From the IMG/VR virus record IMGVR_UViG_3300031841_002095, positions 1 to 32,964 of that record: a DNA stretch of 32,964 bases; one strand, written 5' to 3'. This document shows positions 9,988-28,621 of the stretch, one piece after another. The notes beneath the pieces were generated by a model that did no database searches, was not told the origin of the DNA, and was given only the letters and a program-made list of their open reading frames with translations. The stretch's first letter is position 1. Each line of letters begins with the position of its first letter. This stretch comes from a virus. Made by a program: the position numbers and the translations under genes.

Positions 9988-10153
9988 TTTGTTTTAACTC
10001 AAATATTATTTTTTCTAAGTTTTTTACTCTTTCCTCGTATTCACCGATACTTTCAAAGAAAGCACTCATCATGCTTTCCATTTTTTTATTTAAATAATCT
10101 GTATCGACCTTAGTTCGTTCATTTAAAGGAACTCTTGTATCTTGTATTGACAT
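9977..10153 (-). CDS. 58-aa coiled-coil protein
   Basis: A short gene fills the gap between the Thr-rich fibre gene and the GT-B-like gene. It runs from ATG at 10153-10151 to TAA at 9979-9977 and encodes 58 aa beginning MSIQDTRVPLNERTKVD. Its ATG shares one base with the fibre gene stop (TAATG), the junction style used throughout this strand. It overlaps the next gene by 11 bases. Residues about 20-55 form a likely amphipathic helix or short coiled coil (YLNKKMESMM through ERVKNLEKIIFEL). No family is recognised. The position directly after a repeat fibre would suit a small chaperone or trimerisation partner of that fibre, but this is only a guess. Confidence 0.65.
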   Translation of the reverse strand: MSIQDTRVPLNERTKVDTDYLNKKMESMMSAFFESIGEYEERVKNLEKIIFELKQNGS

Positions 10154-13453: not shown

Positions 13454-16198
13454 TTATACCTCTATTGTTGTTCTAATGAACTTATAACTCATGCTGTCTG
13501 TTGAAGCAGGAGTTACTCTTAATCTTACGTTACCACCACTTATATCTGCATCAAATGTTGCTTGTGCGCCATTGTCAAATATAGAAGCGTACTGTGTTAA
13601 ATAAACTGTTGTTCCGTCATGGAATAGTACTATTTCTAAAGATTGATAATCTGAATCTGTACTATTTGTAATCTGTACTAGATACTTGGCAGTTCTAAAT
13701 GTAGCTGCTGCAAAACTGTCTAGTGTAAATTGTGTAGTTGCTGTTGAAGTTCCTGTACCTACATCCATACCAGCTACTTCGTCTATATGAAGTTTTTGAA
13801 CTGGATTTGCATCTTGAATACCTAACTTACCTTTTACCTCAATTATAGCACTAGTACCATTACCAAGACCTATATTAGCACCGCTAAATCCCATATTTCC
13901 TGTCATTGATTTACCATCAAGTGCTGCACTTGATAATTGTGTAGTTGTTATAGAATTATTTGCAATCTCACTTGACCCAACAGCGTTAGCGGCTATTTTA
14001 GCTGCTGTTACAGAGTTAGCTCCTAGTTTTGCATTTGTTACATTAGCATTGGCAATCTTTGCTGTTGTAACTTGTAAGTTTCCTAAATGTGCTGTATCAA
14101 TACTGCCATCTACATAATGTTCTGAATCTATAGAATCATCTGCTATTTTTGTACCATCTACTATATCTGCTGCTAAATGTATTCTGTCTACACTTCCTGA
14201 AGCAATTTCGGAACTATCTATTGAGTTTGCTGCTATTTTAGCTGAGGTTACAGAGTTAGCACCTAGTTTTGCGTTGGTAACATTTGCATCAAGTATCTTT
14301 ACTGTTGTAACAGAATCTGCTGCTAATTTAGCTGTTGTAACTTGTAAGTTTCCTAAATGTATTGTGTCTATAGAACCTGAAATTAATTCTGCTGAATCTA
14401 CTGAGTTAGAAGCTAATTCACTTGAACCAACTGCTCCTGCAACAATAGCTGCGGCTCCTACAGAGTCCGTTGCTATTTTATTTGTTGTTACTGCATTATC
14501 TGCAATATGAATTGCATCAATAGAACCTGTTACTATTTCTGCGCTGTCTACTGTGTTTGCAGCCAAAGTTGTTGATAAAGCTACTGCAGCTCCTCCGTTA
14601 AAATTAACTGCTGAAGCTGTTACATCTCCTGTTAAAGAGAAAGCTCTATTTGTTGCTAGAGTAGTAGCTGTATCAGCGTTTCCTGTTAAATCGCCAGTTA
14701 CATTACCCTCTATATTAGCTACAAGTGTTCCTGTTGTTACTGTTAAGTCGCCTGTTGAAGCACCAGTAAATGTACCTGTACCCATAAGGAACTTATCTGC
14801 ACTTTCATCAAATCCCATAAAGGCATTGTTAGAGTCTCCTCTTTCTATTACGATACCTGCATCGTTTGATGGAGTTCCTGTTGTTCCTGTACCGAGTTCC
14901 ATTAATGGATCGGCAATTGTTGTAGTGGTTGAGTTAACTGTTGTAGTTGTTCCGTTTACAGTTAGATTACCTGAAAGTGTGACATTTCCTGTGAATGTCT
15001 GTCCACCAAGTGCATCTGATTTTAATTCTGAAGCTGACACAGCGTTTGCTGCAATATGACTTGCATCTATATTACCTGTAGCTATATGTCTTGATAATAG
15101 CGAATTAGTAGCAACTTTTGAAGCATCTACTGCGTTATCTGCTATATTACCAGTAGCAATAGTATTATCAGCTATCTTTGCACTTGTAACTGCGTCGTCT
15201 GCTATTTTTGCAGTTGTAACTTGTAAAGCTCCTATGTGTATAGTATCAATACTACCACTTACTAATTCACTTGAGTCTACTGAGTTTGCAGCTATCTTAC
15301 CTGCTGTTACTGAGTCTGTTGCTAAGTGTATTGTATCTATTGAGCCAGTTACTAATTCTGCTGAATCTACTGAGTTTGATGCAAGTTCAGAAGCACCTAC
15401 TGCGGCGGCTCCTATATGTCTTGCTTGAACACTATCTGTAGCTATTTTTGTTCCATCTATTGCGTTATCTGCTACATTTCCTGTTGCGATAGTATTAGCA
15501 GCTATTTTAGCTGAAGTTACTTGTAAGTCTCCAATATGTGCTGTATCTATACTAGCATCTACTAAATGTTCTGAATCTATAGAGTCATCAGCAATTTTAG
15601 CACCTGTTATCGCATCTGCAGCGATTTTTGCAGTAGTAACCTGTAAGTTACCTATGTGTATCGTATCGATAGAGCCAGTAATTAATTCTGCGCTGTCAAC
15701 ACTGTTTGCTCCAAGTTGAGTGCTAGTGATACTCCCATCAGCAATATGATGAGCAGTAACGTTGTTTGCAGCAATTTTTGCAGTTGTAACCGCATTACCT
15801 GCTATTTCTGAAGAGCCTATTACTCCTGTTCCAATTTCTGCGGAAGTAATAGCATTAGCGGCTATTTTAGCTGTTGTAATTTGTCCTGTGCCTATATGTA
15901 TGGTGTCTATTGACCCACTTACTATTTCACTAGAGTCTACTGAGTTTGCAGCTATAGATGCTGCGTCTATTGAGTTATCTGCTACACCTGTGATAGCGGA
16001 TGCTTGTAATTGTGCTGAGCCTATAGCGTTAGTAGCAATCTCCGATGTTCCGACAGCGTTTGCTGCGATTTCACTGGAGCCTACTGCATTTGCTGCTATC
16101 TCGCTTGCAGTAATAGAATTACTTACTATTTCAGTAGTTCCGACTGCATTGGCCTCCAATACGGAGACTAAATGATTTTCCTTACCTATTAATGCCAT
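13454..16198 (-). CDS. Decapeptide-repeat tail fibre protein
   Basis: A 914-aa fibre. Residues about 15-385 are some 35 consecutive ten-residue units with the consensus xx(N/D/G)(A/S)(V/I)x(S/T)xx(I/L), for example AANSVDSSEI and VTGSIDTIHI. Residues about 386-545 are a different module (TFTGNVTLSGNLTVNGTTTT, then a strand-rich stretch) often seen in phage fibres. About 20 more decads cover 545-760. The C-terminal 150 residues form a compact domain with LHIDEVAGMD, FRTAKYLVQITNS and LEIVLFHDGTTVYLTQY, which I recognise from cyanophage structural proteins. The regular hydrophobic residues at positions 5 and 10 suit a beta-solenoid or trimeric beta shaft. The role in host attachment is inferred from operon and fold type. 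Confidence 0.85.
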   Translation of the reverse strand: MALIGKENHLVSVLEANAVGTTEIVSNSITASEIAANAVGSSEIAANAVGTSEIATNAIGSAQLQASAITGVADNSIDAASIAANSVDSSEIVSGSIDTIHIGTGQITTAKIAANAITSAEIGTGVIGSSEIAGNAVTTAKIAANNVTAHHIADGSITSTQLGANSVDSAELITGSIDTIHIGNLQVTTAKIAADAITGAKIADDSIDSEHLVDASIDTAHIGDLQVTSAKIAANTIATGNVADNAIDGTKIATDSVQARHIGAAAVGASELASNSVDSAELVTGSIDTIHLATDSVTAGKIAANSVDSSELVSGSIDTIHIGALQVTTAKIADDAVTSAKIADNTIATGNIADNAVDASKVATNSLLSRHIATGNIDASHIAANAVSASELKSDALGGQTFTGNVTLSGNLTVNGTTTTVNSTTTTIADPLMELGTGTTGTPSNDAGIVIERGDSNNAFMGFDESADKFLMGTGTFTGASTGDLTVTTGTLVANIEGNVTGDLTGNADTATTLATNRAFSLTGDVTASAVNFNGGAAVALSTTLAANTVDSAEIVTGSIDAIHIADNAVTTNKIATDSVGAAAIVAGAVGSSELASNSVDSAELISGSIDTIHLGNLQVTTAKLAADSVTTVKILDANVTNAKLGANSVTSAKIAANSIDSSEIASGSVDRIHLAADIVDGTKIADDSIDSEHYVDGSIDTAHLGNLQVTTAKIANANVTNAKLGANSVTAAKIAANAVGSSEIANNSITTTQLSSAALDGKSMTGNMGFSGANIGLGNGTSAIIEVKGKLGIQDANPVQKLHIDEVAGMDVGTGTSTATTQFTLDSFAAATFRTAKYLVQITNSTDSDYQSLEIVLFHDGTTVYLTQYASIFDNGAQATFDADISGGNVRLRVTPASTDSMSYKFIRTTIEV

Positions 16199-16199
16199 A

Positions 16200-16532
16200 T
16201 TATGTTTGCTCCAAATATGATAGGACTACATCGATACTACTTGCTACGTTGCTTTGTACTTGTATACTGTCCCCTGCCTCTAATACTACTTTTGCGTCTC
16301 CACCTATGACCGCTATTGACGTGCCACTTGGTATTGGTGTATTATGTGTTATGTTTACTAATGTAGATGAACTGCTATCACTGAAAACAGTGTTTGCTTC
16401 GATTGAGCCACCACTTTGATTACATAAGTACATACCTATTATAGTGCTGGTACTACCTACTGGTGATGTATAAACCGTTGTAAGCGAAGTGCCTACATTT
16501 GCTGCCGTTGCTGTCTTAAATGATGAAGCCAT
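16200..16532 (-). CDS. Small beta-rich tail protein
   Basis: A 110-aa beta-strand-rich protein (SLTTVYTSPVGSTSTIIGMYLCNQSGG, LEAGDSIQVQSN). The pattern of an early VYTSP strand, a mid-protein YLCNQS strand and a late LxxGDSIxVxS strand matches small beta-sandwich proteins common in phage structural operons, in which the sandwich attaches to a larger fibre. I know no specific function. It has AGGAT about six bases before the ATG and sits one base after the next gene's start region. Confidence 0.7.
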   Translation of the reverse strand: MASSFKTATAANVGTSLTTVYTSPVGSTSTIIGMYLCNQSGGSIEANTVFSDSSSSTLVNITHNTPIPSGTSIAVIGGDAKVVLEAGDSIQVQSNVASSIDVVLSYLEQT

Positions 16533-16536
16533 ATTT

Positions 16537-16740
16537 CTATCCTAGTGCTATGGCTAACGCTAGTACATCGTCTTCGGTTTGTCCACCTGAAGAACCTATT
16601 GTTACTATTGAACCATTAGCCGCTTTTGTATAAATCTTACCGTCTGCGATATTCATCGCAATTTCATGTGTTTGTAGGTCACTTGACTCTGGTATATTAC
16701 CACTTGTTTCTGACCTTTTTGGTTTAATCACATGAGCCAT
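16537..16740 (-). CDS. Small fibre-like protein with KxKRS start
   Basis: A 67-aa protein matching the first domain of the 526-aa fibre encoded just upstream. KPKRSETSGNIP, then LQTHEIAMNIADGKIYTK and NGSIVTIG, follow the same K-x-KR-S / L-x-x-xE-(L/I)-A / K-(L/I)-(Y/F) / G-x-V-x-x-I-G layout. Standing alone, it is a stripped-down fibre head or attachment domain, possibly derived by duplication. The end is a short hydrophobic helix (DDVLALAIALG). GGAGGT lies 10 bases ahead of the ATG, inside the end of the upstream gene. Confidence 0.7.
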   Translation of the reverse strand: MAHVIKPKRSETSGNIPESSDLQTHEIAMNIADGKIYTKAANGSIVTIGSSGGQTEDDVLALAIALG

Positions 16741-16741
16741 A

Positions 16742-18322
16742 TTAGAACGTACCTCCGTCTAATATATTACTCCATGCTATTGTTCCGTTTGCTCCAACTT
16801 GCAGTACTTGTCCTACTGAATTAGTAGAGTCATATGCTCCGATAGCAAGTCTAGTATAAGAACTACCGCCATTTGCTCCAAAGATTAAGTCACCTTCTGA
16901 AACTGAGCCAATACCTTTTATTCTTAGAATATCAGAATTAATTTCAATTGTTGTATCATCTACTCTTACATCTAAAGTGTTACCTGTAGCTAATAAACCA
17001 TCTCCTGCTGTTATCTGTCCAGCACCTGAGAATTGTGTATATACTAAGTTGTCTGTACCTAATGTTGCGGAGCCTGTTACTGAAGTTAAAACAAAACCAT
17101 TGTCGCCATTTGTAGTACCTTCTTCAACGAATGTAAACATACCACCTGTAACTTCTGCAGAAGAATCTGCATCAGTTGTTCTTGTTAGTACAAAAGCAGT
17201 ACTTCCATCTCCGACTGTTGTTACGCTATAAAGACCATTTTGAGTAGTAGTAGTTTGATTTTTAACAAGTACTCTGTTACCAGAAGTTAAAGTGACTCCA
17301 TCAATTGAAATTGCACCATTTGCATCTGCTGTAAGTGTAGCTCCTACACCACCTGTTCCATTGTCATATGTAGCTGCTAAGTTTGCTGTGGTTGCTACTC
17401 TTGCTGAGTCTTTAATGTCTAGTGCTTGTTTAACGCTATCTACATAAGCTTTTGTTGTTGCGTCTGTTGCTTGGGTAGGAGTACCAATATTTCGTACTCT
17501 ATTTCCACCCATATCAATAGTATTTGTAGAAGCAACATTTAATCCATTACTAAAGTCTACGGTGTTCCCGAAAGTTGCATTACCATTGATAGTTATTGTG
17601 TCTGTTGAAGCATCTCCTAAAGTAACTGCTCCGTTACCTGTAAGTGCTCCTGTGATTGTAACTCCAGAAGAAAAAGTTGCGGCATTAGTTACTCCTAAAG
17701 TACCACTAATACTTGTATTACCTTCTCCTGCTGATACTGTAAACTTATTTGTATTTACAGTAATGTTACCTGTGACTCCTAAATTACTTCCCACATTTGC
17801 TGAACTTGTAACTTCTAAAGTACCGCCAGTATTTAGAGACATTGTTCCTACATTTATGGATTCAGAGCCATTAGTTGTTATAAATGATAAATAAGGTGTT
17901 GTTCCTTCTTTTATAACAAAAGATGCTGCTTCATTATCAGCAATTAATAAATCAGTTGCTTGAGCATCTACATCTATTGCACCACCATGAGTAACTACTA
18001 AGTCTCCTGTTGGAGCTATAGTTAAATTACCTGATGAAGTTGAAATTGTATCTGAAGAACCAGTAACTACAATATTACCAGATTTAAACTGGTCAACTTT
18101 ACTTTGTGCGTCTACAAGAATTGCAGAACTTGCGGTAAGTGTACCAGCAGTATGGTCAAGCATAGCGACATATAAGTCGCCGCCTATTGTTGTAACTGTT
18201 CCATCAGATGGAGCTCCAATAAATAGCTTCTGCGAATTAGAAGAATACGCTAATTCACCAGCACTTAATGAAGTTGGCGTGGCGGAACTGCTACTTCTTT
18301 TAATTTTAATTGTTTGTGCCAT
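16742..18322 (-). CDS. Tail fibre protein
   Basis: A 526-aa fibre. Residues 1-45 are the KIKRSSSSATP / LSAGELAYS / KLFIG attachment domain seen at the start of many phage fibres. Residues about 90-285 are strand-rich repeats of the SGNIVVTGSSDTIS, LGVTGNITV and LGVTNAATF type. TKAYVDS near 288 starts a conserved module that continues with RVATTANLA and IDGVTLTSGNRVLVKNQ (about 336-352) and QNGLYSV, a widespread fibre domain. The protein ends VGQVLQVGANGTIAWSNI, a common fibre terminus. It is probably a virion surface protein. No tail spike enzymatic motif is seen. The ATG has AGGAC about seven bases upstream. Confidence 0.85.
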   Translation of the reverse strand: MAQTIKIKRSSSSATPTSLSAGELAYSSNSQKLFIGAPSDGTVTTIGGDLYVAMLDHTAGTLTASSAILVDAQSKVDQFKSGNIVVTGSSDTISTSSGNLTIAPTGDLVVTHGGAIDVDAQATDLLIADNEAASFVIKEGTTPYLSFITTNGSESINVGTMSLNTGGTLEVTSSANVGSNLGVTGNITVNTNKFTVSAGEGNTSISGTLGVTNAATFSSGVTITGALTGNGAVTLGDASTDTITINGNATFGNTVDFSNGLNVASTNTIDMGGNRVRNIGTPTQATDATTKAYVDSVKQALDIKDSARVATTANLAATYDNGTGGVGATLTADANGAISIDGVTLTSGNRVLVKNQTTTTQNGLYSVTTVGDGSTAFVLTRTTDADSSAEVTGGMFTFVEEGTTNGDNGFVLTSVTGSATLGTDNLVYTQFSGAGQITAGDGLLATGNTLDVRVDDTTIEINSDILRIKGIGSVSEGDLIFGANGGSSYTRLAIGAYDSTNSVGQVLQVGANGTIAWSNILDGGTF

Positions 18323-18342
18323 GTTTTTGTCCTATTGAGCTA

Positions 18343-18720
18343 TTAAAAAGCTCCTGCGTCTATCGTGTCAGAATCTGCTGAGTCGTTACCTATCATTATA
18401 GGAACAAAAGTAGCTGAGCCATCGACATCTCGATAAACCTTTAACTGATTGTCGTCAGTATCATAAAATAAATCTCCTTCAGCAAGATCTTGTGTGTTTG
18501 CTGATGGAGCTGTTGTTGCAACATAAAATTGATTTGCTAGAAAGTTGAGTGCGTTTTCAACATTTGATTGCGATGATAATGTACCTACAGGATTAGATAA
18601 AGTAATTCCTGCAGCATCACTTGCACTACCACCAACTGCCGAAGATATTGTCAAGGTTGTAGTTTGTGAAGTGGCGTTCAGGCTAGTATTATTAGGAGTA
18701 ATAGTTATCGTTGTTGCCAT
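18343..18720 (-). CDS. Fibre-associated tail protein
   Basis: A 125-aa protein. Its N-terminus is Thr/Ser-rich beta (TTITITPNNTSLN, TTTLTISSAVGG). The C-terminal half holds DLAEGDLFYDTDDNQLKVYR, the short beta module common to phage fibre tips and collar proteins. Its last residues DTIDAGAF recall the LDGGTF end of the 526-aa fibre downstream, a shared small terminal motif. It overlaps the 112-aa gene by one base (TAATG). A structural role at the tail tip is likely from context; its partners are unknown. Confidence 0.7.
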   Translation of the reverse strand: MATTITITPNNTSLNATSQTTTLTISSAVGGSASDAAGITLSNPVGTLSSQSNVENALNFLANQFYVATTAPSANTQDLAEGDLFYDTDDNQLKVYRDVDGSATFVPIMIGNDSADSDTIDAGAF

Positions 18721-19058
18721 TATCTTGTTACATTTTGTGTAACTCTTGCTACACCTTGAATTAATCTAGCCATTGAATCAAGGCCAGAATTATATATTTC
18801 TAAATCATAATAGTATTTACCTGCTGTAATATTTGCTGTTGTTGCGTGTCCAAGGGACATTTTCAGCGCACCATTTGCAGCATCTGTTATTGTACAGGTG
18901 AATGTTGCTGTTAGGGTATTTGAAGAGGGGGTAGGTCGAAGTTGAGCGGATGCTGTGTGACTTGATAAGTTTGTAGCGACTCCGTCTTCGGCAATAGTAA
19001 TCAAGAGTGCAAAGTCTGCTCCCTGATCGATAACTATATCATAATTTCCCGCTGCCAT
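18720..19058 (-). CDS. Conserved phage beta-sandwich protein
   Basis: A 112-aa protein. It follows a pattern I recognise from many phage structural operons: YDIVIDQGADF near the N-terminus, then HTASAQLRPTP, F-x-C-T-I-T-D, GALKMSLGHATTANI, GKYYYDLEIY and a terminal VTQNVTR. Relatives seem to be small beta-sandwich proteins encoded with fibres or baseplate parts, but no certain function is known to me. It is the first gene after the consensus promoter and has an ideal ribosome site (AGGAG, then six bases, then ATG). It should be the most strongly expressed member of the fibre operon. Confidence 0.75.
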   Translation of the reverse strand: MAAGNYDIVIDQGADFALLITIAEDGVATNLSSHTASAQLRPTPSSNTLTATFTCTITDAANGALKMSLGHATTANITAGKYYYDLEIYNSGLDSMARLIQGVARVTQNVTR

Positions 19059-19079
19059 AAAATACTCCTATATGCAATA

Positions 19080-19108
19080 ATTATATCAAAAACTTGAGGT
19101 GATGTCAA
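19080..19108 (-). promoter_or_regulatory. Consensus sigma70 promoter for the fibre operon
   Basis: On the - strand, TTGACA (19108-19103) and TATAAT (19085-19080) are exact consensus boxes with a 17-base spacer, the optimal distance. The predicted start is near 19073. A leader of about 15 bases carries AGGAG at 19069-19065, six bases before the ATG at 19058. It lies in the only sizeable gap of the - strand module (74 bases). An exact match at both boxes with optimal spacing is very unlikely by chance, so host sigma70 RNA polymerase probably starts transcription of the fibre genes here. Confidence 0.85.
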
Positions 19109-19120
19109 GAATTATTTTTG
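19087..19120 (-). terminator. Inverted repeat and T-run interleaved with the promoter
   Basis: On the - strand CTTGA (19109-19105) pairs with TCAAG (19097-19093) across a 7-base loop and is followed at once by TTTTTG (19092-19087). An upstream CAAAAA (19120-19115) can pair with that TTTTTG if a 5-base bulge is allowed. This is terminator-like for transcripts coming from the J gene, though the stem is weak. The -35 box lies inside the left arm and loop. The element could be a weak terminator, an operator or both. Confidence 0.4.
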
Positions 19121-19132
19121 AAGGGTAGTTAT

Positions 19133-19585
19133 CTAAGCTGGTGGAGCATAGTAATGTTCACCATAAAGATCGTGACATACCTGCACTTTAAAGGCATTGA
19201 GTCTAAAACCTCCACCTTCGTTTAACACATCCAATACCCATTGTTTCATTTGATCTGTTGTTAAAGCATTGTGAGGAGTCCAGCCGTTAACAATTCCTGT
19301 ATACGGACTTGCGCCTCCACTTGCTCTAGTTGTAGGAAAGAACCCTAGTTGATAAGTTCCTGTAAGAGTTTGGTCTGACTGTCCTGTTATTAAATAAGGT
19401 GCGTTTGAAGTTGTTGTATCTGTTGCAGTATAAGTTAAAAATACTTTATCTACAATCATTTCTAAGTCTCCACAATCTTTTGTCTCATGATGTGAGTATG
19501 CCCAAGTAACATTTATCTGACAATCCAGAGTTGTTGTTACTGCATTTCCTTCGCTATCTGTTCCTGTTTTTATTATCCAATCCAT
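19133..19585 (-). CDS. Unknown protein following J
   Basis: A 150-aa protein with no family I can name. It begins MDWIIKTGTD and has strands around CQINVTWAYSHHE. The middle (LTGTYQLGFFPTTRASGG) is loop-rich. A helix (TDQMKQWVLDVLNEGG) precedes a C-terminal part with Cys, His and Tyr (VQVCHDLYGEHYYAPPA). Its ATG shares one base with the J stop, and its ribosome site lies within the last codons of J, so it is translationally coupled to J and probably a tail-tip or assembly factor. It is the last gene before the internal promoter. Confidence 0.75.
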   Translation of the reverse strand: MDWIIKTGTDSEGNAVTTTLDCQINVTWAYSHHETKDCGDLEMIVDKVFLTYTATDTTTSNAPYLITGQSDQTLTGTYQLGFFPTTRASGGASPYTGIVNGWTPHNALTTDQMKQWVLDVLNEGGGFRLNAFKVQVCHDLYGEHYYAPPA

Positions 19586-22500
19586 TATTCTTTTACCTGC
19601 TCCGAGTTATGTGTTACGATGTTTTCTACAATATAAGTATCTGCGTCTTCAACATTAAAGTTATAAGTTTGTACTTCTTGGTCTACTCTCTGTTTGCGCC
19701 AAACTTTTTCTAATACTAAATTATTTGTAACTAAGAAATCGCCTTCTAGTATATCTTCTGCTCGTTCCCAGCTATAAGTGTCCCCTCTTAATATTAAGAA
19801 AGGATGTTCATATGTTGCATGTACTTTTTCATTTAGTATATAGTACCATGAGTAAGAATCTACATATACTGTTTCTACTGTAGAAGTAGTTTTAGTTGTA
19901 TTTACTAGTGAAGGAGCTGTCCAAGTTTTATAGGCATCTTCGTTGCTCTCATCTAAAGTAGTGTCTGTTATAGCTTCTAGTGAATCTCCAACTACTATAT
20001 CCTGAACTTTTTTACTTGTGCCATCTGCCATCATTATGTTTGAGCCGTAAACCAAACAACCGCCACCGCCACCACCTGGTGGTGTAGAGGTGCCTCCAGT
20101 TGTTAATGACCACCCTCTTGCTACACCTCCAATAGTTACTGTTGTTGATGTTGTTGATAAGTTTGAAGCTGATGTAGTCATTTGTACGTTTACATAACTA
20201 CCGTTTGATATTTGTTGGCTACTTGTTCCAAAACTACCGTTATCAATTTTAAACTGTGCACTTCCACCTGCTATTGAAACTGTTTTTGTTCCTTGGAATC
20301 CTCCAGTTACTTGTGTATTAGCATATAGAGTAGTGCTTAGTGATTGTCCAGTTAGATTACTAAAACTAAATGCTGGGTCTGTTGTACCAAACTTAATAAA
20401 ATTATATTTAATAAATCCTAGCTTAGAACTACTATTATCTCCTTGGGCTGCTACATATAGATTTATTGTTCCTGTTCCTTCATATTTAAATGAAACTGGA
20501 ATCATTCCTTGTGTTCTTGAAGCAAAGTTAGGATCAGTTGAAGTACCACCTGTGCCGTTAGTTCCAATTACTGGAGGGAATACTCTAGATTCATGGATAG
20601 CATGGTCAATGTTTTTACATAGTCTTGCACTAAATGGACCAGATTCTTGTTGAGTAGCAAAAGTAACAGTAGTAGTACTATTAGTATGTAAATTAGAACC
20701 GTCACTTACATGAAAATGTAATGTTTTGACGTGAGCTGTTCCACCTACTCCTGATACTAAAATGTTTCCTACATAGTATCCTGCTCCTGTTCCCACATCA
20801 CCAAGATATCTATAGTTAAAATCATTCTGATAGAATGTTCCAATAGTAGTACCACTTACATTGGCTCCTGTTGAAGCTAATGTAATATTTGATGTTGTTA
20901 ATGTTCCTGAGATTGTAACATTGTTTCCTACAATTGTACCTTTGAACTCTGCATTTCCTGCTGAATCTATAAAGAACTCTTTTGAATGTATTGACCCTGC
21001 TGATGCTAATTGTATTCCTTGGTTTGTAAAATTATTTGCTTGTACAGTTGGAGAGCCTCCTGATATTGCGCTAGATGTTATTGTCCACCCACCAACACTA
21101 CCTCCAGTTTTTGCTCCACCTGCTAAGGTATTTGTATTAGCTGCTGTGTTTGCTTGTGATAAAGTAGCTTTAGAGTCTGCTGTAGTTTGTGCATCTGAAG
21201 CTGCGTTAGCCGCATCTGAAGCCGCATTAGCTGCTGTATTAACTGAGTCTGAAGTAGCCCCACCTGCATCTGTTACAGAACCTATAGTTAAACTTCCTTT
21301 GAAGAAAGCGTTACCTGAAGTATCTATATAAAATTGTTTAGCGTGAATAGACCCTTGACTATTTAAAGTAATACCCCCCGTAGTATATCCACTAATATCT
21401 TTTGTTCCACTGTAAATTGCACTACTGTCAATAGTCCAGCCGCCTACTGTGCCTCCTGTCTTAGCTCCGCCTGCCAAGGTATTTGTATTAGCTGCTGTAT
21501 TCGCTTGTGCTAAAGTAGCTTTAGAGTCTGCTGTATTTTGTGCAGCTGAAGCTGAGTTAGCTGCTGAATTAACTGAGTCTGAAGTAGCTCCGCCTGCATC
21601 TGTTACAGAACCTATAGTTAAACTTCCTTTGAAGAAAGCATTTCCACTTGTATCTATATAAAATTGTTTTGCATGTATTGAGCCGGCACTATTTAAAGTA
21701 ATACCCCCCGTAGTATACCCATCAGTATCTTTTGTTCCGCTGTAAATTGCGCTACTGTCAATAGTCCAGCCACCCACACTACCACCAGTTTTAGCCCCGT
21801 TTGATAGTATGTTTGTATTAGCTGCTGTATTCGCTTGTGCTAAAGTAGCTTTACTATCTGCCGTATTTTGAGCGTCTGAAGCTGCAGCTGCTGCTCCTAC
21901 TTCTGCTTCAATAGCAGAAGCTGCTGTTGCTCCTATTTGTACGGATTGCCCTATAGCTAGTGTTCCGTTTGCACTATAGAACTTAATAAACTTGTTCCCT
22001 GAATCCTGTCCAATATTTACATTACCAGCACCGTCAAAGTATACACCTAAGTCCCCGTCTGCAAACGTGGTTTTATTTGCTGTGACAAACTTACCATTAT
22101 CTCCACTTGTTCCTAATTGAATTGTGTTTGCTATATTTGCTCTATTTGTAAATGTAGTATTTGCACTTAATCTATTTGCTTGTAATGTTCCTTCAACAAT
22201 TACTGAGCCATCGAAAGTTTCAACAACTAATGAACTAAAGTTTGCTGCTGTTATTGAACCTGATGAAGTAGCTGCAGAACCGTTATATATTCTTGTACCT
22301 GCAACATCTGCACTATTGTCTGTTACTGTTATTCTATCGTTTGGTCTTATTGTGCTATCACTTGCATTTGCTATTACAGCTGAAGCTACCGCTTGTGCGG
22401 AGGCATTATTAAGAGTACCTGCAAAATTACTTGCTTGTGCTGCTGATATTTGTGAAGTATCACTTTCTTCAAAAGTAAAGATACTTGAACCTCTAACCCC

Positions 22501-25500
22501 ATCAACACCTATGCTACCAGCATTTACTTTTACAAAATTAAGTGTTTTTACTGCTACTGTTACGCCGTCTGAATTATCGATAATAGGAATAGTTGTGCTA
22601 CCTGTAAGAGTTGAACCACTTCCTATAGCTGAGTTTGCATTTAAAGAAACTACTCCACTACTTGATACTGCTGAACTTACGTTAACATCTGTTCGTGTTC
22701 CATACCTGAAACTATTTGCAGTATAAGGAGAACTTGCATCATAGCTATATATTTGGCTTCCTTTATATACTTTTGGAGTTGAACTAAAAGTTGTAAAATC
22801 ACTGATAGTACCACTGCTATTTGCATCAAAAGCATGTGATTCATTATCAAAAGTTACAGTATATGCATCTACTCCTGGAGTACCATCATCTCCTCCGATT
22901 GATTTAGATAATGATTGTACTTTTGTAAATGTAAACTCAGTGCCATCACTATTTTTAACTATAATAGTATAAGTTACTTTTGCATTATTTGCAGTCATGG
23001 AGTTATGTACTCCAAATCTTCTTGTGTATGTTGAAACAGTACTTGCAGTTCCTACTCCAATACTAGTACCTGAAGCAGATACTCTAAAAGAAGGAGAAGC
23101 ATAAGGAGAGCTTCCATCATAAGGAACTTGAGTTGTTCCATCGTATACTATAATGTCTGTACCAGAATCTTGATAATTTACTGAACCCTGATTAGTTGTA
23201 GGCATGGTGTGCGCTTCATTAGATAATATAACAGTTATCGCATTTGCACCATCATCACCGTCTGTTCCGTCTGTTCCAGGTTTTATACCGTATACTGTTA
23301 ATTGGTCTCTAGCTTTAATTGCTGCAGAGCCACTATCTCTAATTTGAACTTCTATTTTATCAGGCATATTGCCGAAAGAAGATTGAGGTGTGTATGTGTA
23401 AGTATTTGTAGTAGTATTTGCCTGACTTACATCATTTAAGAAAAACTCGTAATATACAGTTCCATTTGTATTTAATGCAGTAGCTGTTACTGTTGTACTT
23501 GAAGGAGAAGGAGTGCTTCCTGTATTTGCATAGGTAAATGCTTGGTCACCTATAGTTAAGTTTACTGTTCTTGAATCTTCTCCTGCTGAGCCATCTTCAC
23601 CATCTGCACCTGGCAGTCCGTCTGCTCCTTTCTCTCCACTAGCAAAATTAACTAAAGAGAATGTACCTCCAGTATTTAGTACTGAAGCTATTACAGTATC
23701 TTTCTGTCTATCGAATCTTAATGATTGTGCAAATAAGTTGGCTCCTGAGTATGTTCTGTCAGAGCCACTAGCTACAGTCATTGAAGTATCATTTTCAATA
23801 TGTGCTACTCTTGCCCAAAAACGAGAAGCTCCAGCATCGTCTAATATTACTAAGTCCCCTGCTCTAAAGTCTGATAAAAATGTTGTGGAAGACCCAACTA
23901 CATTTGAACTAAATCTTTCTAAACTAAAAGTACCATTTGCTTGACTTAAGTCTTCATTTGATTGTCCTAATCTTTTAAAGAAGCTAAAGTAATATGGTTG
24001 TCCTCCAGTAGCTGTAGCTGCTACATTATCTGTTCCAGCAACGACTGCTCTTAATACGTCTGTTCTTGTATTTCCTCTTGCTAAGTTTCCGTCATAATCG
24101 AATAATAAATAACCTGTTTGACCATTTGCTAAACTTGAAAAGTTTTGTTGAGTAAAATTAGTATTACCACTTGCTATAGATATACTAGGTATTCCAGTAG
24201 GTGGAGTAAATGTATAAGTGCTTGAATCAAAAGTTACAGTACCGTTTGCACTGCCTATACTCATTCCTGTAGTTAAAGTTCCACCTCTAGCAATTTGTTG
24301 ATTTAATCCTGCTCCAATTACACCTTCACTTGGTATACCTATATCTGAAGGATCAAAAGTAAACTTAGCTTGTATAAACTCAGAAGTGTACCCTTGAGTA
24401 TTAACTGTTCTTACGCGTACTCTGTACTCATCCCCTGGTGGTATATTTCTTATGCTAAAACTGCTTTGTCCTCTACTTCTAATTTGTTCTCTAATAAAGC
24501 CACTATTATTTCTTACTTTATCAGATTGAGGCACATCATGTTCTAAGTCAAAACCAGCTAAGTGTTCATAAATATCATCTAATGCATTTCCGTCTGAATC
24601 TGTTCTTATAGATTTTGGTGCTGTCCATTGTACTAAAGCTTTATAACCTTTTATTGGTTGGTCAACATCTGTAACATCTCCACCTTCTTCATCAGGTACT
24701 ATTTGTACAGATACATTTATTGGTAGTGGAACTATCTCTGTTCTAAGAGGTGGTCTCATTATATCAGGTATATCTGGTATTACCCAACCTCTATCTATTT
24801 CTGTAAACTTGTTAACATCATATTCTGCTGCAGTAATTTCAAACTGTAGCTCTTTTGTTTTTTCTTTTATACCAGTAATAATATATTCTTTTGCACTTCC
24901 AGTTACATCAGCTCCTGTTGCTTGTTGTCCTGTAATTGCATATATTACTTCACTGTTAGGTGCGGAACTAAATGCACTTGATACAGTTACATTTGATGAG
25001 TTATATGATGAAATAGGTTTTGTTTCTATTCTTTGATCTTCTGACCATATAACTTGTACTTGGCCACCTGAATCATCTTTTAATTGTGATGCAGAAGCTT
25101 GAGTTGAGATTGCTGTTCCGTTTGCGTGTTCTAATACAAGGTCGCCTACTTTATAATCTGTGCTGTTAATTGTAGCAGTTGGTTGCGCTATATATGCACC
25201 TCCGCTTGGATATATTAAATGTAAATCAAAATTATCTGTACCATTTAGACTTAATGCTCTATCTGTTTCGATTACAGTAGTAGTAGAAGCTTTTGCAGTT
25301 GATACTCTTCCAGAGAATTGTACATCTTTGTCATCTGCATCTTGTACAAGAATAACATCTCCAGCAACTAAAGCACCCCCATTGATACCTGTACTAAATG
25401 TTACGATTTCTTTTTCTAATTTTTCAGTAAGTAAATGCCATCTTCCAAGTCTTTGTGCTTGACCTTGAGAAGTACAACCAAGAGCTGGTAAATCTTTTGA

Positions 25501-27615
25501 TATTACCCTACCTGTTTCTGCAATATTATTATCATCTGTTACTATTTCTACTGCTTGTTTGTATCTATTATCTGGGTCGTTCCAAGTAACCTTTACTTCA
25601 TTTGTTCTAAATCTTCTAGAACTGCCTGAATAACTAAAAGTTCCTTCAATAACATTTGATTTACCAAAAGTATATATCGGGCCTTTCTCTCTGTTTGAGT
25701 TTAAACTCACTTGACCATTGTGCCAAATAAGCATACCACGAATCATAGTACTTAAATCTTTCAGTAATCTTAATGCATCTTGCCCTTTCTGTATAAATAA
25801 GTTACATGAGAAGCGAGGCTCTGTTCCGCCTTTTCCATTTGGTACAAGTTCGTCACAGTATTTCGCTAAGTTATATAAAGTATACTTATCTACTTGTGTA
25901 AAGTCAAAATCTGGGTCTACATACTTTCCAAGTCCATATCTTGGATTCGTAATTAAGTCCATAAATATCCATACTGGGTTGCTGGTATATACAGGCATAT
26001 AGTTAGGACTTGTAGCGTTAAAAGTCTTTTGGTCTCCCCTAAAATTACCATCCCAGTCTACAGGATTTCCTGTATCTGCCCCTGTAGTAACATTACGACT
26101 ATAAGAAGCAGTTGCTCTTCTTGCTCCTGTATCATCATGTATTTCATCTGCTGGGAAATAGTTAGTAGGAACTTTTACTTTTAGCCCTCTAATTTCGTAT
26201 GCTCTTTCAGGTATATCATCAAAATCCTCAGCATCAACTACTACAGCTGCATAAGCTGTATAAGGATAAGTTAACTTATCAGTAATAATATTTTCTATAG
26301 ATACTAAACTGCCTTGGTTACTTTGTTGCCAGCTATTTTCTTTTTGATTTACTGGAGATACTCTTTGAACTTCTATTTTGTAATCAGTAAAAGGTTGGTA
26401 TTTTGATATATCAAAACTAAATATACTATTGAAAGGAGCTTGTATCTGTCCATCAATTATACCTGAGCTACCAGATCTTACACGAGTATTTGCATGATAA
26501 TCTCTAACATTTGAAGATAAAGTTCTTCTACCATAAATAACGTGTTCATTATTTGAAAAACTATCTGTTGAATCTGTTTTATATGAGAAGACTATTCTAT
26601 ACTCAGCAAATCCAGGCCCTTTCTTCCCATTTTCTTTGTTAGAAATCATTGAAGCATGATTTAAAGTTACACGAATAAAATCTACTTCTCCTGGGTCTGC
26701 TATATTCATACCAGTAGAAGCAACTCTGCTAATTCCTGATTCTCCGTTTCTATCAGGAGAAATGTCAGTACTTATTCCTAAAGCAGTATTAGTTGGTTGA
26801 CCTATCGATCTTAAATCTGTTTGGTCTAATGCTGCATTTATTGAATGTGCTGAAGAAGCACTACCTATACCAGAAGGAGCAGATAGATATGCTTGTTCTC
26901 TTTCTCCTTTTCTAAATGCCCAGCCAAAGTTGTTAAAATTGTATTTTAGTACGTCTCCTGCTGCTGATTTAGGAGGAGATATTATAACTGCAGTAGCTGA
27001 AGTTGTTATTCCGCCACCATTTGTTAAAGTTGCCTGAGTGCTACTACCTATAGCTGAAATTGTGTCTACTAAGTCGATTGAAACATTAGCAGAAGAAACT
27101 GTTTTTGCAGGAGGACTGTCTACTCTTACATGAGTAACATTTATAAATTGAGTTATTTGACCTGCATACTCTGTGCCGTCTTTACCCGCTCCTTCTATTC
27201 TAATAAATTGATTTAATGGTTTTGCTTCATCTCTAATATCATCTGCTGCAAAGAAAGAAGTAGCGGTACTTACAATATTATTACCTGCTGATGTAGAAGC
27301 ATTTGTTGCTCTCTTCTTACCTGCTATTACAGAAATATATCTTTCTCCTTGTGCAGTAGTAAGATTTTCAAATACAGCTCCACCACCTTGGTCTGTTACT
27401 ATACCACTTGTTGCATTATAAGAAGCATTAGGAGTTCTAAGTAGTTGAAAATAAGTACCTACATTGGCAGATGCTGCAGGGTTACCGTCAATTATAATAC
27501 TGTTCGGTCCGTTAACTAATCCTTCAATTGGTCCTTCGGACACAGCATCATATATGACAGCAGTTTGATGCCTAGTAGATTTTGTTAATTTATTATATCT
27601 AGAGTTTCCTGCCAT
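19585..27615 (-). CDS. J-like tail tip (host specificity) protein with C-terminal intein domain
   Basis: A 2676-aa central tip protein; lambda J is 1132 aa. The N-terminus YDAVSEGPIEGLVNG, later WIFMDLITNPRYGLG, IRGMLIWHNGQVSL and EVKVTWNDP are J-family signatures. A fibronectin-III-like domain lies at about 975-1080 (GYKALVQWTAP, GDEYRVRVRTVN). Short collagen-like GxD runs start near 1325 and recur. Two related beta domains with SNEAHTMP and SNxSSG-like strands follow (about 1450-1700). Three tandem GGWTIDSSAIYSG / AGSIHAKQFYIDTSG / FKGSL units occupy about 1945-2210. A terminal beta-sandwich leads to six glycines and then a Hint domain (2520-2670). It should recognise the host receptor at the distal tail. 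The order H-M-L-K-I-J around it matches lambda exactly. Confidence 0.93.
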   Translation of the reverse strand: MAGNSRYNKLTKSTRHQTAVIYDAVSEGPIEGLVNGPNSIIIDGNPAASANVGTYFQLLRTPNASYNATSGIVTDQGGGAVFENLTTAQGERYISVIAGKKRATNASTSAGNNIVSTATSFFAADDIRDEAKPLNQFIRIEGAGKDGTEYAGQITQFINVTHVRVDSPPAKTVSSANVSIDLVDTISAIGSSTQATLTNGGGITTSATAVIISPPKSAAGDVLKYNFNNFGWAFRKGEREQAYLSAPSGIGSASSAHSINAALDQTDLRSIGQPTNTALGISTDISPDRNGESGISRVASTGMNIADPGEVDFIRVTLNHASMISNKENGKKGPGFAEYRIVFSYKTDSTDSFSNNEHVIYGRRTLSSNVRDYHANTRVRSGSSGIIDGQIQAPFNSIFSFDISKYQPFTDYKIEVQRVSPVNQKENSWQQSNQGSLVSIENIITDKLTYPYTAYAAVVVDAEDFDDIPERAYEIRGLKVKVPTNYFPADEIHDDTGARRATASYSRNVTTGADTGNPVDWDGNFRGDQKTFNATSPNYMPVYTSNPVWIFMDLITNPRYGLGKYVDPDFDFTQVDKYTLYNLAKYCDELVPNGKGGTEPRFSCNLFIQKGQDALRLLKDLSTMIRGMLIWHNGQVSLNSNREKGPIYTFGKSNVIEGTFSYSGSSRRFRTNEVKVTWNDPDNRYKQAVEIVTDDNNIAETGRVISKDLPALGCTSQGQAQRLGRWHLLTEKLEKEIVTFSTGINGGALVAGDVILVQDADDKDVQFSGRVSTAKASTTTVIETDRALSLNGTDNFDLHLIYPSGGAYIAQPTATINSTDYKVGDLVLEHANGTAISTQASASQLKDDSGGQVQVIWSEDQRIETKPISSYNSSNVTVSSAFSSAPNSEVIYAITGQQATGADVTGSAKEYIITGIKEKTKELQFEITAAEYDVNKFTEIDRGWVIPDIPDIMRPPLRTEIVPLPINVSVQIVPDEEGGDVTDVDQPIKGYKALVQWTAPKSIRTDSDGNALDDIYEHLAGFDLEHDVPQSDKVRNNSGFIREQIRSRGQSSFSIRNIPPGDEYRVRVRTVNTQGYTSEFIQAKFTFDPSDIGIPSEGVIGAGLNQQIARGGTLTTGMSIGSANGTVTFDSSTYTFTPPTGIPSISIASGNTNFTQQNFSSLANGQTGYLLFDYDGNLARGNTRTDVLRAVVAGTDNVAATATGGQPYYFSFFKRLGQSNEDLSQANGTFSLERFSSNVVGSSTTFLSDFRAGDLVILDDAGASRFWARVAHIENDTSMTVASGSDRTYSGANLFAQSLRFDRQKDTVIASVLNTGGTFSLVNFASGEKGADGLPGADGEDGSAGEDSRTVNLTIGDQAFTYANTGSTPSPSSTTVTATALNTNGTVYYEFFLNDVSQANTTTNTYTYTPQSSFGNMPDKIEVQIRDSGSAAIKARDQLTVYGIKPGTDGTDGDDGANAITVILSNEAHTMPTTNQGSVNYQDSGTDIIVYDGTTQVPYDGSSPYASPSFRVSASGTSIGVGTASTVSTYTRRFGVHNSMTANNAKVTYTIIVKNSDGTEFTFTKVQSLSKSIGGDDGTPGVDAYTVTFDNESHAFDANSSGTISDFTTFSSTPKVYKGSQIYSYDASSPYTANSFRYGTRTDVNVSSAVSSSGVVSLNANSAIGSGSTLTGSTTIPIIDNSDGVTVAVKTLNFVKVNAGSIGVDGVRGSSIFTFEESDTSQISAAQASNFAGTLNNASAQAVASAVIANASDSTIRPNDRITVTDNSADVAGTRIYNGSAATSSGSITAANFSSLVVETFDGSVIVEGTLQANRLSANTTFTNRANIANTIQLGTSGDNGKFVTANKTTFADGDLGVYFDGAGNVNIGQDSGNKFIKFYSANGTLAIGQSVQIGATAASAIEAEVGAAAAASDAQNTADSKATLAQANTAANTNILSNGAKTGGSVGGWTIDSSAIYSGTKDTDGYTTGGITLNSAGSIHAKQFYIDTSGNAFFKGSLTIGSVTDAGGATSDSVNSAANSASAAQNTADSKATLAQANTAANTNTLAGGAKTGGTVGGWTIDSSAIYSGTKDISGYTTGGITLNSQGSIHAKQFYIDTSGNAFFKGSLTIGSVTDAGGATSDSVNTAANAASDAANAASDAQTTADSKATLSQANTAANTNTLAGGAKTGGSVGGWTITSSAISGGSPTVQANNFTNQGIQLASAGSIHSKEFFIDSAGNAEFKGTIVGNNVTISGTLTTSNITLASTGANVSGTTIGTFYQNDFNYRYLGDVGTGAGYYVGNILVSGVGGTAHVKTLHFHVSDGSNLHTNSTTTVTFATQQESGPFSARLCKNIDHAIHESRVFPPVIGTNGTGGTSTDPNFASRTQGMIPVSFKYEGTGTINLYVAAQGDNSSSKLGFIKYNFIKFGTTDPAFSFSNLTGQSLSTTLYANTQVTGGFQGTKTVSIAGGSAQFKIDNGSFGTSSQQISNGSYVNVQMTTSASNLSTTSTTVTIGGVARGWSLTTGGTSTPPGGGGGGCLVYGSNIMMADGTSKKVQDIVVGDSLEAITDTTLDESNEDAYKTWTAPSLVNTTKTTSTVETVYVDSYSWYYILNEKVHATYEHPFLILRGDTYSWERAEDILEGDFLVTNNLVLEKVWRKQRVDQEVQTYNFNVEDADTYIVENIVTHNSEQVKE
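19606..20058 (-). other. Mini-intein / Hint domain at the C-terminus of J
   Basis: Residues 2520-2670 of the J-like protein form a complete Hint domain of 151 aa. It starts with Cys2520 after a run of six glycines (CLVYGSNIMMADG, block A, with VGDSLEA following). Block B is VHATYEHPFL with the TxxH pair. The C-terminal block is TYIVENIVTHN, ending His2669-Asn2670, followed by Ser2671 as +1 nucleophile. All four residue classes used in canonical protein splicing are present. There is no LAGLIDADG or other homing endonuclease insert. The C-terminal flank is only SEQVKE. Confidence 0.88.
21263..21639 (-). repeat. Exact 47-bp repeats 330 bases apart in J
   Basis: Bases 21263-21309 and 21593-21639 are identical over 47 positions and lie 330 bases (110 codons) apart. 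They belong to a roughly 110-residue unit (GGWTIDSSAIYSG to GATSDSVN) present about three times between 21,050 and 21,800, the copy nearest the C-terminus being the most diverged. Exchange between copies would change the number of units without shifting the frame. Confidence 0.85.
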
Positions 27616-28310
27616 TATTTTTGTTCCTCTGAAGCTATAGCGTCATTACCGCCGCCAGTTCCACCACCTGAGCCGCCGCCTGCCGAGCCGCCGCCAGTTC
27701 CGCTTGAATAGCTACCTGAGTAGGTTCCATCTTTCTTTCCAAAAGTAAATCCATTACTTGCAGTAATTTTTGTGTCTGTAAATCCAAAGTTTATAGGTGC
27801 GCCCCCTACTTCTAACTTACCATAAGCTAGAGGTACTGGTATACCTACTTTGGCATTATTAATCGGGCCTTTGAACAGGTTTGATTCATCCGATTCATCA
27901 TCGGGCATTTCGGGAGTTAACATATCTACTATTCCTTTTAGTGCGAGTAATCCTCCCCCAACTATAAGAGCTACCCCAACAGCTGTTGTTGCTCCAAAAG
28001 TAAATACTCCTAATATAATTAGTGCTACTCCTAAGAGTGCTTTTAAAAAATCTGCTCCCTGAGGTAAAGGAGTAATAATTAAATCATTCTCTCCTAAGTC
28101 ACTGTGTAAATTATCATAATCAAGAAGCTCTGAGCCTTTTGCAACGTGAAACTCTATACCTTTATCGGTACAGTCTAATAAATATTTTCTAACGCCACCT
28201 TTCATTTGGTCAATAGCGTGCATAGCTTCATGAACATTTTTACATACCAGTTCATGCTCTTTTCCAAAGAGTTCGCCCATTCTTCCTAATAATATTATCT
28301 TTCTTTTCAT
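27615..28310 (-). CDS. Lambda gpI-like tail assembly protein
   Basis: A 231-aa tail assembly protein of the lambda I type, thought to act with gpK, gpL and J in building the tail tip. Residues 1-80 are a compact ubiquitin-like N-terminal region (KIILLGRMGELFG, NDLIITPLPQG). A long Gly/Ala/Val/Ile hydrophobic stretch covers about 88-130 (FLKALLGVALIILGVFTFG), a hallmark of gpI. NNAKVGIPVPLAYG at 151-164 is the family motif near the C-terminal domain. The last 35 residues are Gly/Ser-rich. The gene lies between the JAMM protein and J with ATGA and TAATG overlaps, the same position as in lambda. Confidence 0.88.
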   Translation of the reverse strand: MKRKIILLGRMGELFGKEHELVCKNVHEAMHAIDQMKGGVRKYLLDCTDKGIEFHVAKGSELLDYDNLHSDLGENDLIITPLPQGADFLKALLGVALIILGVFTFGATTAVGVALIVGGGLLALKGIVDMLTPEMPDDESDESNLFKGPINNAKVGIPVPLAYGKLEVGGAPINFGFTDTKITASNGFTFGKKDGTYSGSYSSGTGGGSAGGGSGGGTGGGNDAIASEEQK

Positions 28311-28621
28311 TGTGGTTCTAAAATAAATACCTCTTGTTGTGGGTAAGATACAATCATATATGGTATACCTACCGCGTTACAGTTGTCAATGTCATACTGG
28401 CTTGGACGACATTCCGAGTCATAGTGACTATGGACAACATATTTTATATTCGAATTGAGTTGATGATGTATGAACAGTTTTGCGTCAATTTTAAACTGTG
28501 AAATATCTTCGTGGAGATTTTCACTCGGAATATATTTTTCCTCATTCTCATCTACTATAACAAGTCCGCAACATTCTCCTGGAGCAGCCGATTTTGCATG
28601 AGCAAATATATCAGCTATCAT
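28307..28621 (-). CDS. JAMM/MPN metalloprotease, short gpK-like tail protein
   Basis: A 104-aa protein consisting only of the JAB1/MPN (JAMM) domain found at the N-terminus of lambda gpK. The metal and catalytic residues are intact: E16 in GECCGL, H64-S-H66, S74 and D77 with the required spacing HxH-x7-S-x2-D. Lambda gpK is about twice as long and carries a second NlpC/P60 peptidase domain, which is missing here and is not encoded separately among the adjacent genes. In JAMM phage proteins the substrate is thought to be a tail component or cell wall; neither is shown here. It overlaps its neighbours by 1 and 4 bases. Confidence 0.88.
   Translation of the reverse strand: MIADIFAHAKSAAPGECCGLVIVDENEEKYIPSENLHEDISQFKIDAKLFIHHQLNSNIKYVVHSHYDSECRPSQYDIDNCNAVGIPYMIVSYPQQEVFILEPQ

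What the first reader, a model, noticed from the sequence alone, without database searches (positions are those of the whole stretch)
19585..20058. Complete mini-intein at the very end of the tail tip protein, with a six-residue C-extein
Seen: Cys2520 after six Gly, a TxxH block, His2669-Asn2670 and Ser2671, and then only SEQVKE before the stop. Known: these residues suffice for canonical protein splicing, and Hint domains also act as hedgehog-type or bacterial-intein-like autoprocessing units that cut or ligate their N-terminal partner through a thioester. Inference: splicing here would merely add six residues to J. Removal of the domain, or making a reactive Gly-thioester at the end of a flexible Gly linker on the tip of the virion, may therefore be the real purpose. 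One possibility is covalent attachment of J to a tail partner or host nucleophile. Tip maturation by self-cleavage would be the simpler version.
Basis: partly seen in the sequence, partly recalled or inferred. Interest (0 to 1): 0.8.

Follow-up and report, generated by a model that had tools for sequence, protein, structure and literature searches.

The report
Self-processing Hint cap on phage tail tip
The tip protein of this marine phage's tail ends in an intein-like self-cutting domain that, judging from its relatives, is built to detach itself (possibly passing the cut end to a lysine in its own short tail) rather than to splice like a normal intein, and it is swapped between phages together with the tip's host-recognition end.

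Summary
In detail: the 2676-aa lambda-J-like protein (19585-27615, minus strand) ends in PPGGGGGG-Cys2520, a complete ~151-residue Hint domain (T2601xxH2604, H2669-N2670) and SEQVKE. A confident model (pLDDT 89.6) matches bacterial intein-like (BIL) domains best (Z 20.3 and 18.9).

Relatives change the interpretation. In 23 distinct J-Hint sequences Cys1 (Ser in three), TxxH and HN are kept, but +1 is V/K/A/I/N and Ser only in the window's lineage, so canonical splicing is not the conserved function. The domain is A-type-BIL-like and under purifying selection.

It sits at the very end of J, followed by a DUF7936-like gene (39/39). Sister phages 90-97% identical on both sides lack exactly window 19135-21060: distal J, Hint and that gene swap as one cassette. 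Terminal Hints also end unrelated tail proteins of jumbo phages, and a second class sits inside a ~430-aa virion protein.

Unexpectedly, every terminal C-tail (1-12 aa) holds a Lys, and +1 is Lys in 79/79 internal cases. Tetrahymena BIL2, the closest solved fold, makes a Lys isopeptide.

Best reading: a self-releasing C-terminal cap (0.6); Lys-isopeptide transfer is the novel reading (0.2). Nothing was tested experimentally.

The parts
19606..20058 (-). Hint domain of J, Cys2520 to Asn2670 (A-type-BIL-like)
20056..20058 (-). Cys2520, N-terminal nucleophile (Cys, or Ser in three of 23 J relatives)
19804..19815 (-). T2601-x-x-H2604 (block B); His invariant, Thr at least 90% conserved in the 38-member alignment
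19606..19611 (-). His2669-Asn2670 (block G), invariant
19588..19605 (-). C-tail SEQVKE (residues 2671-2676) with Lys2675 in the K-x-stop position; Ser2671 at +1 is peculiar to the window's lineage
20059..20076 (-). six-glycine leash 2514-2519; Gly at -1 in Cys-type J-Hints, acidic EEEA in the Ser-type clade
20077..21060 (-). distal part of J, directly before the Gly leash; absent from 92%-identical sister J proteins
19585..27615 (-). lambda-J-like tail tip protein, 2676 aa (Phage-tail_3 612-763, fn3 988-1077)
19133..19585 (-). DUF7936-like protein, 150 aa; its start overlaps the J stop; found directly behind a J-Hint in 39/39 loci
19135..21060 (-). exchangeable cassette: distal J + Gly leash + Hint + DUF7936-like gene, without counterpart in two sister phages

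Best explanation
[quoted passage not shown] After folding, Cys2520 attacks the Gly2519-Cys2520 bond and forms a Gly thioester (inferred). Asn2670 cyclises and cuts the short tail (inferred). The thioester is then resolved by water or by an amine, so that the Hint leaves J (inferred). The net product is a mature J ending in poly-Gly, with or without the short tail. The domain thus acts as a temporary, self-releasing cap for the receptor-binding end of J, comparable in logic to the self-cleaving Peptidase_S74 chaperone caps of other phage fibres. Shown here: fold, conservation of the catalytic set, absence of a conserved +1 nucleophile, fixed terminal position, purifying selection, and exchange as one cassette with distal J and the DUF7936-like gene. 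Inferred: that cleavage occurs, its timing, and the capping role.
For: Catalytic residues kept in 38 diverse members; dN/dS 0.15-0.36. Closest folds are BIL domains, which the literature describes as mainly cleaving because they lack a +1 nucleophile (PMC7664689; PMC7765530). +1 is not C/S/T in 22 of 23 distinct J-Hints, while four phage inteins have C, T, C, T. Hints end within ~12 aa of the C-terminus of unrelated tail proteins: J, collagen-like jumbo-phage tail proteins, a serine/threonine-rich repeat fibre, a Shewanella-borne fibre, which argues for a terminal function. Cassette swap with distal J: sister J proteins are 92% identical up to about residue 2204 and lack the end and the Hint. 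Tail fibres sharing J's stalk repeat end in Peptidase_S74 instead, a domain class removed by autoproteolysis after fibre folding (PMC10579305).
Against: No cleavage was observed; everything is from sequence. Removing only a tail of 4-8 residues does not by itself explain why Asn is invariant. The S74-ending proteins are not J orthologues (no PF13550 in their records), so a shared 'slot' holds for the stalk repeat, not for J. Sister phages manage without any cap. The Lys signature is not explained by simple hydrolysis.
Confidence: 0.6

Rival explanations
1. Lys-isopeptide transfer: the Gly thioester on Cys2520 is attacked by the epsilon-amine of the tail Lys (Lys2675; +1 Lys in internal Hints), and Asn cyclisation then frees the Hint, leaving J's C-terminal Gly joined to the tail by an isopeptide bond. 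Lys replaces the usual C/S/T.
For: Every terminal C-tail examined contains Lys although tails are 1-12 aa; post-hoc chance over ten lineages about 4e-7 against background proteins of the same loci. K-x-stop in 20 of 23 distinct J tails, Lys at +1 in the other three. Internal-Hint virion family: +1 Lys in 36/36 distinct and 79/79 loci. The closest solved fold, Tetrahymena BIL2, is reported to make an isopeptide with a nucleophilic Lys of its C-extein (PMC8616854).
Against: Lys and Glu near the stop partly overlap the ribosome-binding site of the next gene, though L027, L038, L080 and L156 have that site after the stop and still carry Lys. The distance from Asn to Lys varies. The modelled tail is disordered. 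The lineage count and test were made after seeing the data.
Confidence: 0.2
2. Canonical class 1 protein splicing: Ser2671 accepts the acyl group and SEQVKE is ligated to ...GGGGGG.
For: All class 1 residues are present in the window.
Against: Ser +1 is found only in the window's own lineage among 23 distinct J-Hints; tail length and sequence vary; the Hint is not inserted in a conserved enzyme site.
Confidence: 0.07
3. Thioester handed to another molecule: J is covalently joined through its Gly end to a tail partner (for example the DUF7936-like protein) or to a host-surface nucleophile, hedgehog- or BUBL-like.
For: Strict linkage and co-exchange with the DUF7936-like gene; Gly at -1 as in hedgehog proteins (general knowledge); BIL2 conjugates to substrates.
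Against: No invariant Cys or Lys in the DUF7936-like family; no acceptor known; an invariant Asn and a Lys tail are unneeded for simple transfer.
Confidence: 0.07
4. Inert structural cap or trimerisation domain that stays on the virion.
For: Terminal position on a trimer-forming class of protein (general knowledge).
Against: Invariant nucleophile, His and Asn.
Confidence: 0.04
5. Decayed selfish mini-intein without present function.
For: The Hint fold is shared with inteins.
Against: Purifying selection; catalytic set kept; fixed terminal place in unrelated genes; the internal-Hint family shows no Hint-less member among its best 80 relatives.
Confidence: 0.02

Closest known systems
[quoted passage not shown]
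   Same: fold (Z 18.9, rmsd 1.4 over 131), profile E 1.6e-13, N-terminal region, TxxH, terminal HN, no conserved +1 nucleophile
   Different: here fixed at the extreme C-terminus of a phage tail tip on a Gly leash; tail of 4-8 aa with Lys; virion context
BIL2 of the Tetrahymena BUBL1 locus (6Y75, 6TMM)
   Same: best structural match (Z 20.3, rmsd 1.9 over 140); its reported acceptor is a Lys amine, as our Lys signature would require
   Different: eukaryotic polyubiquitin-like locus flanked by ubiquitin-like domains; Lys lies in a folded C-extein
PT-HINT (PF07591) of bacterial polymorphic toxins
   Same: Pfam match above cut-off (30.0 vs 27.7 bits)
   Different: no toxin downstream; five bacterial PT-HINTs read here have C, S, C, A, C at +1
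Peptidase_S74 intramolecular chaperone caps of phage fibres
   Same: C-terminal self-removing module at fibre tips; follows the same stalk repeat in other fibres
   Different: unrelated fold and chemistry; not found in J orthologues here
Hint domains already annotated in phage records (NCTB 'contains intein domain', Erwinia/Dickeya jumbo phages, BFVD 'Hint domain containing protein')
   Same: same terminal Hint in tail proteins
   Different: annotation only; no functional study found in the open library searched

Membership tests
HINT superfamily | horseshoe Hint fold | tested here: met
   AF2 pLDDT 89.6; 85 chains at Z>=8, rows shown all BIL/intein/hedgehog
A-type BIL | conserved C-terminal His-Asn | tested here: met
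   invariant in 38 members and in further loci
A-type BIL | no conserved C/S/T at +1 | tested here: met
   V14 K3 A2 I2 S1 N1 in 23 distinct J-Hints
A-type BIL | sits in variable regions of non-conserved proteins | tested here: met
   distal J cassette swapped between sister phages
A-type BIL | N- and C-terminal self-cleavage | not testable with these tools
   needs expression and mass spectrometry
Canonical class 1 intein | +1 Cys/Ser/Thr | tested here: not met
   met in the window only, not in the family; control inteins C,T,C,T
Canonical class 1 intein | insertion in a conserved site of a host protein, precise removal restoring it | tested here: not met
   Hint always ends within the last ~12 residues, in unrelated tail proteins
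Hedgehog (Hog) | sterol-recognition region after the Hint | tested here: not met
   protein ends 6 residues after Asn2670
PT-HINT (PF07591) | curated Pfam score | tested here: met
   30.0 vs 27.7 bits
Polymorphic toxin pretoxin-HINT system | toxin domain behind the Hint | tested here: not met
   only SEQVKE follows
BIL2-type isopeptide splicing | Lys amine as acceptor | tested here: inconclusive
   Lys in every tail and at +1 of internal Hints; chemistry untested

The most novel reading that the evidence does not exclude
Phage virion proteins use BIL-type Hint domains to make isopeptide bonds: the Gly (or Leu) thioester is passed to a Lys (in the short terminal tail of J-like proteins, at +1 of the internal class), a splicing chemistry without Cys/Ser/Thr that we found reported for one Tetrahymena domain, used here to mature or covalently lock tail parts during assembly.
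Probability: 0.2. Interest if true: 0.85.

Novelty: new variant of a known kind. Interest (0 to 1): 0.62.

Why it matters
It would show that tailed phages use intein-type chemistry as part of virion maturation: a self-releasing cap on the receptor-binding tip, exchanged with the host-recognition cassette. If the Lys signature reflects chemistry, it defines a large natural set of isopeptide-forming BIL domains (hundreds of phage loci) for mechanism work and protein-ligation tools, and makes the open question of what BIL domains are for directly testable in purified virions.

Tried and rejected
Vint (PF14623) search of the window record: no match. First working label 'B-type BIL' dropped: the review says B-types lack the C-terminal motif, A-types keep HN. 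'Hint and S74 are alternative ends of J' rejected: the S74-ending relatives share only the stalk repeat, and their records hold no PF13550. The K-x-stop motif as a pure ribosome-binding-site effect: partly a confound in the J clade but it does not explain L027, L038, L080, L156. DUF7936-like partner: fold search gave nothing useful (best Z 3.7; no Foldseek hit below E 0.1). Named-phage search with the marine J-Hint found only NCTB. Literature searches found Hint in phage terminases (PMC3556154, PMC5259590) but no study of terminal Hints in tail proteins; the library is open-access only. One search lists two mis-framed short loci (L122, L128), left out of the tally; their tails are KEIA.

Full report
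WHAT IS THERE. The minus-strand ORF 19585-27615 encodes a 2676-aa lambda-J-like tail tip protein (Phage-tail_3 at 612-763, E 1.4e-23; fn3 at 988-1077; PHROG 'central tail fiber J' E 7.4e-106). It ends in six Gly, Cys2520, a Hint domain to His2669-Asn2670, and SEQVKE. Pfam PT-HINT scores above its cut-off on the C-terminal part. The AlphaFold2 model has pLDDT 89.6. Its closest solved folds are BIL2 of Tetrahymena BUBL1 (Z 20.3, rmsd 1.9 over 140) and the C. thermocellum BIL 2LWY (Z 18.9, rmsd 1.4 over 131), followed by mini-inteins and hedgehog 1AT0 (Z 17.5). A profile of relatives finds 2LWY at 1.6e-13 and 6Y75 at 2.7e-12 by sequence alone.

RELATIVES. Scans of viral contigs gave 4, then 70, then 147 (80 kept) relatives. 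The patterns of the two profile scans lie inside the Hint (around D2659-Y2661) and do not include Cys1, HN or the residues after HN, so conservation there is not forced by the search. Across 38 aligned members H2604, D2659, Y2661, H2669 and N2670 are invariant; Cys1 is Cys in all but three, which have Ser with an acidic instead of a Gly leash. Pairwise dN/dS in the J-Hint set is 0.15-0.36. The domain is therefore maintained, not decaying.

THE +1 RESIDUE. In 23 distinct J-Hints the residue after HN is V (14), K (3), A (2), I (2), N (1), and S (1, the window's lineage) (two mis-framed rows left out). Conserved HN without a conserved +1 nucleophile is the description of A-type BILs (PMC7765530; PMC7664689).

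PLACE IN THE PROTEIN. The Hint ends within about 12 residues of the C-terminus in unrelated tail proteins: J; the collagen-like tail protein of Alexandravirus-type jumbo phages and relatives (Erwinia, Dickeya AD1, Yersinia fHe-Yen9-02, Alcaligenes Afa-NA1, NCTB); serine/threonine-rich repeat fibres (L027, L038); a Shewanella-borne fibre (L080). Phage NCTB has three Hint genes in one tail cluster, one of them a stand-alone 153-aa Hint.

THE CASSETTE. A scan that used only the gene downstream of J (DUF7936-like, weak Pfam match E 0.0056 for the window; 22 of 23 relatives match, best 1.9e-7) found 39 loci, and all 39 have a J ending in a Hint directly upstream, usually with overlapping stop and start. 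Two sister phages are 96-97% identical over window 15185-19134 and 90-93% from 21061 onward, but have no counterpart of 19135-21060, that is, roughly the last 470-490 residues of J with the Hint plus the whole DUF7936-like gene; they carry ~2.4 kb of other small genes instead. Their J is 92% identical up to residue 2204 and then ends. Distal J, Hint and the DUF7936-like gene are thus exchanged as one unit, as expected of a host-recognition module (the role is inferred).

PROCESSING. Established chemistry of the family (from the literature): Cys1 forms a thioester with the preceding residue; Asn cyclisation cuts after itself; without a +1 nucleophile cleavage dominates, though amine attack can still ligate. 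Applied here, the Hint would leave J, giving a tip that ends in poly-Gly. Fibres that share J's stalk repeat end in Peptidase_S74 in eight of the nine scanned (the ninth, L098, has neither domain), a class of C-terminal chaperone removed by autoproteolysis and proposed to act as a transient cap in related settings (PMC10579305). The S74 proteins are not J orthologues, so this is an analogy of role, not of descent.

AN UNEXPLAINED LYS. All terminal C-tails contain at least one Lys, even those of one or two residues (HNK*, HNVK*); most end K-x-stop. Against 382 other proteins of the same loci, the chance over ten lineages is about 4e-7, a post-hoc figure. In the J clade the next gene's ribosome-binding site overlaps the tail and favours purine-rich codons; four other tails have that site behind the stop and still carry Lys. 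A second class, ~430-aa proteins encoded near a tail-sheath-like gene (gene named by eye), has the Hint between an N-part and an fn3-like C-part: Leu at -1, Cys1, HN, and Lys at +1 in 36/36 distinct sequences. A scan with the N-part alone found 249 relatives; all 80 kept run into a Hint, and +1 is Lys in the 79 that are complete. The closest solved fold, BIL2, is reported to form an isopeptide bond with a Lys of its C-extein (PMC8616854). Lys as thioester acceptor is therefore a concrete, testable hypothesis, not a result.

VERDICT. Observation confirmed; interpretation partly supported. Membership: HINT superfamily and A-type-BIL-like, not a canonical intein. Mechanism: self-releasing cap most likely (0.6), Lys-isopeptide variant 0.2. 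No step of the reaction has been shown here.

Noticed in passing
L165-L241 and L257-L336 (viral contigs), Hint in the middle of a ~430-aa ORF: Large family of marine phage virion-type proteins near a tail-sheath-like gene with an internal Hint, invariant Leu at -1 and invariant Lys at +1, followed by an fn3-like part; no Hint-less member among the best 80.
   Followed up: partly
L040:1888-3798, L052:3691-6408, L078:4162-6906: Proteins with several Hint domains in tandem, in L052 and L078 separated by only 1-2 residues (HN-K-C, HN-RA-C, HN-AP-C), ending HNK or HNKL; N-terminal part unidentified.
   Followed up: no
L006:6480-6941 (phage NCTB): Stand-alone 153-aa Hint gene directly behind a tail protein that itself ends in a Hint.
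   Followed up: no
window 28307-28621 and 27615-28310: The J-Hint shares its operon with a Prok-JAB (isopeptidase-type) protein (Pfam E 1.3e-12) and a gpI-like protein with a Gly-rich end; both are normal for lambda-like tails, but JAB next to Gly-thioester chemistry is suggestive.
   Followed up: partly
L162, L163 (sister phages), between J and the conserved genes: The alternative cassette carries three paralogous small genes beginning MA[DN]R[VI] and containing GK, in place of distal J, Hint and the DUF7936-like gene.
   Followed up: no
L016:4819-6483: Terminal-Hint protein whose next gene reads like a subtilisin-type protease (by eye).
   Followed up: no
window 10153-13224 and 13454-16198: Two very repetitive fibre-like genes (NTNTS/TTTF repeats and SEIA/AKI repeats); a similar serine/threonine-rich repeat fibre carries a terminal Hint in L038.
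   Followed up: no
L139, L146, L153 (J-Hint loci): A J-Hint clade with Ser instead of Cys1, Ala at -1, an acidic linker (such as DDGDDGEEE) instead of poly-Gly, and the tail KEIA/KEIT.
   Followed up: partly
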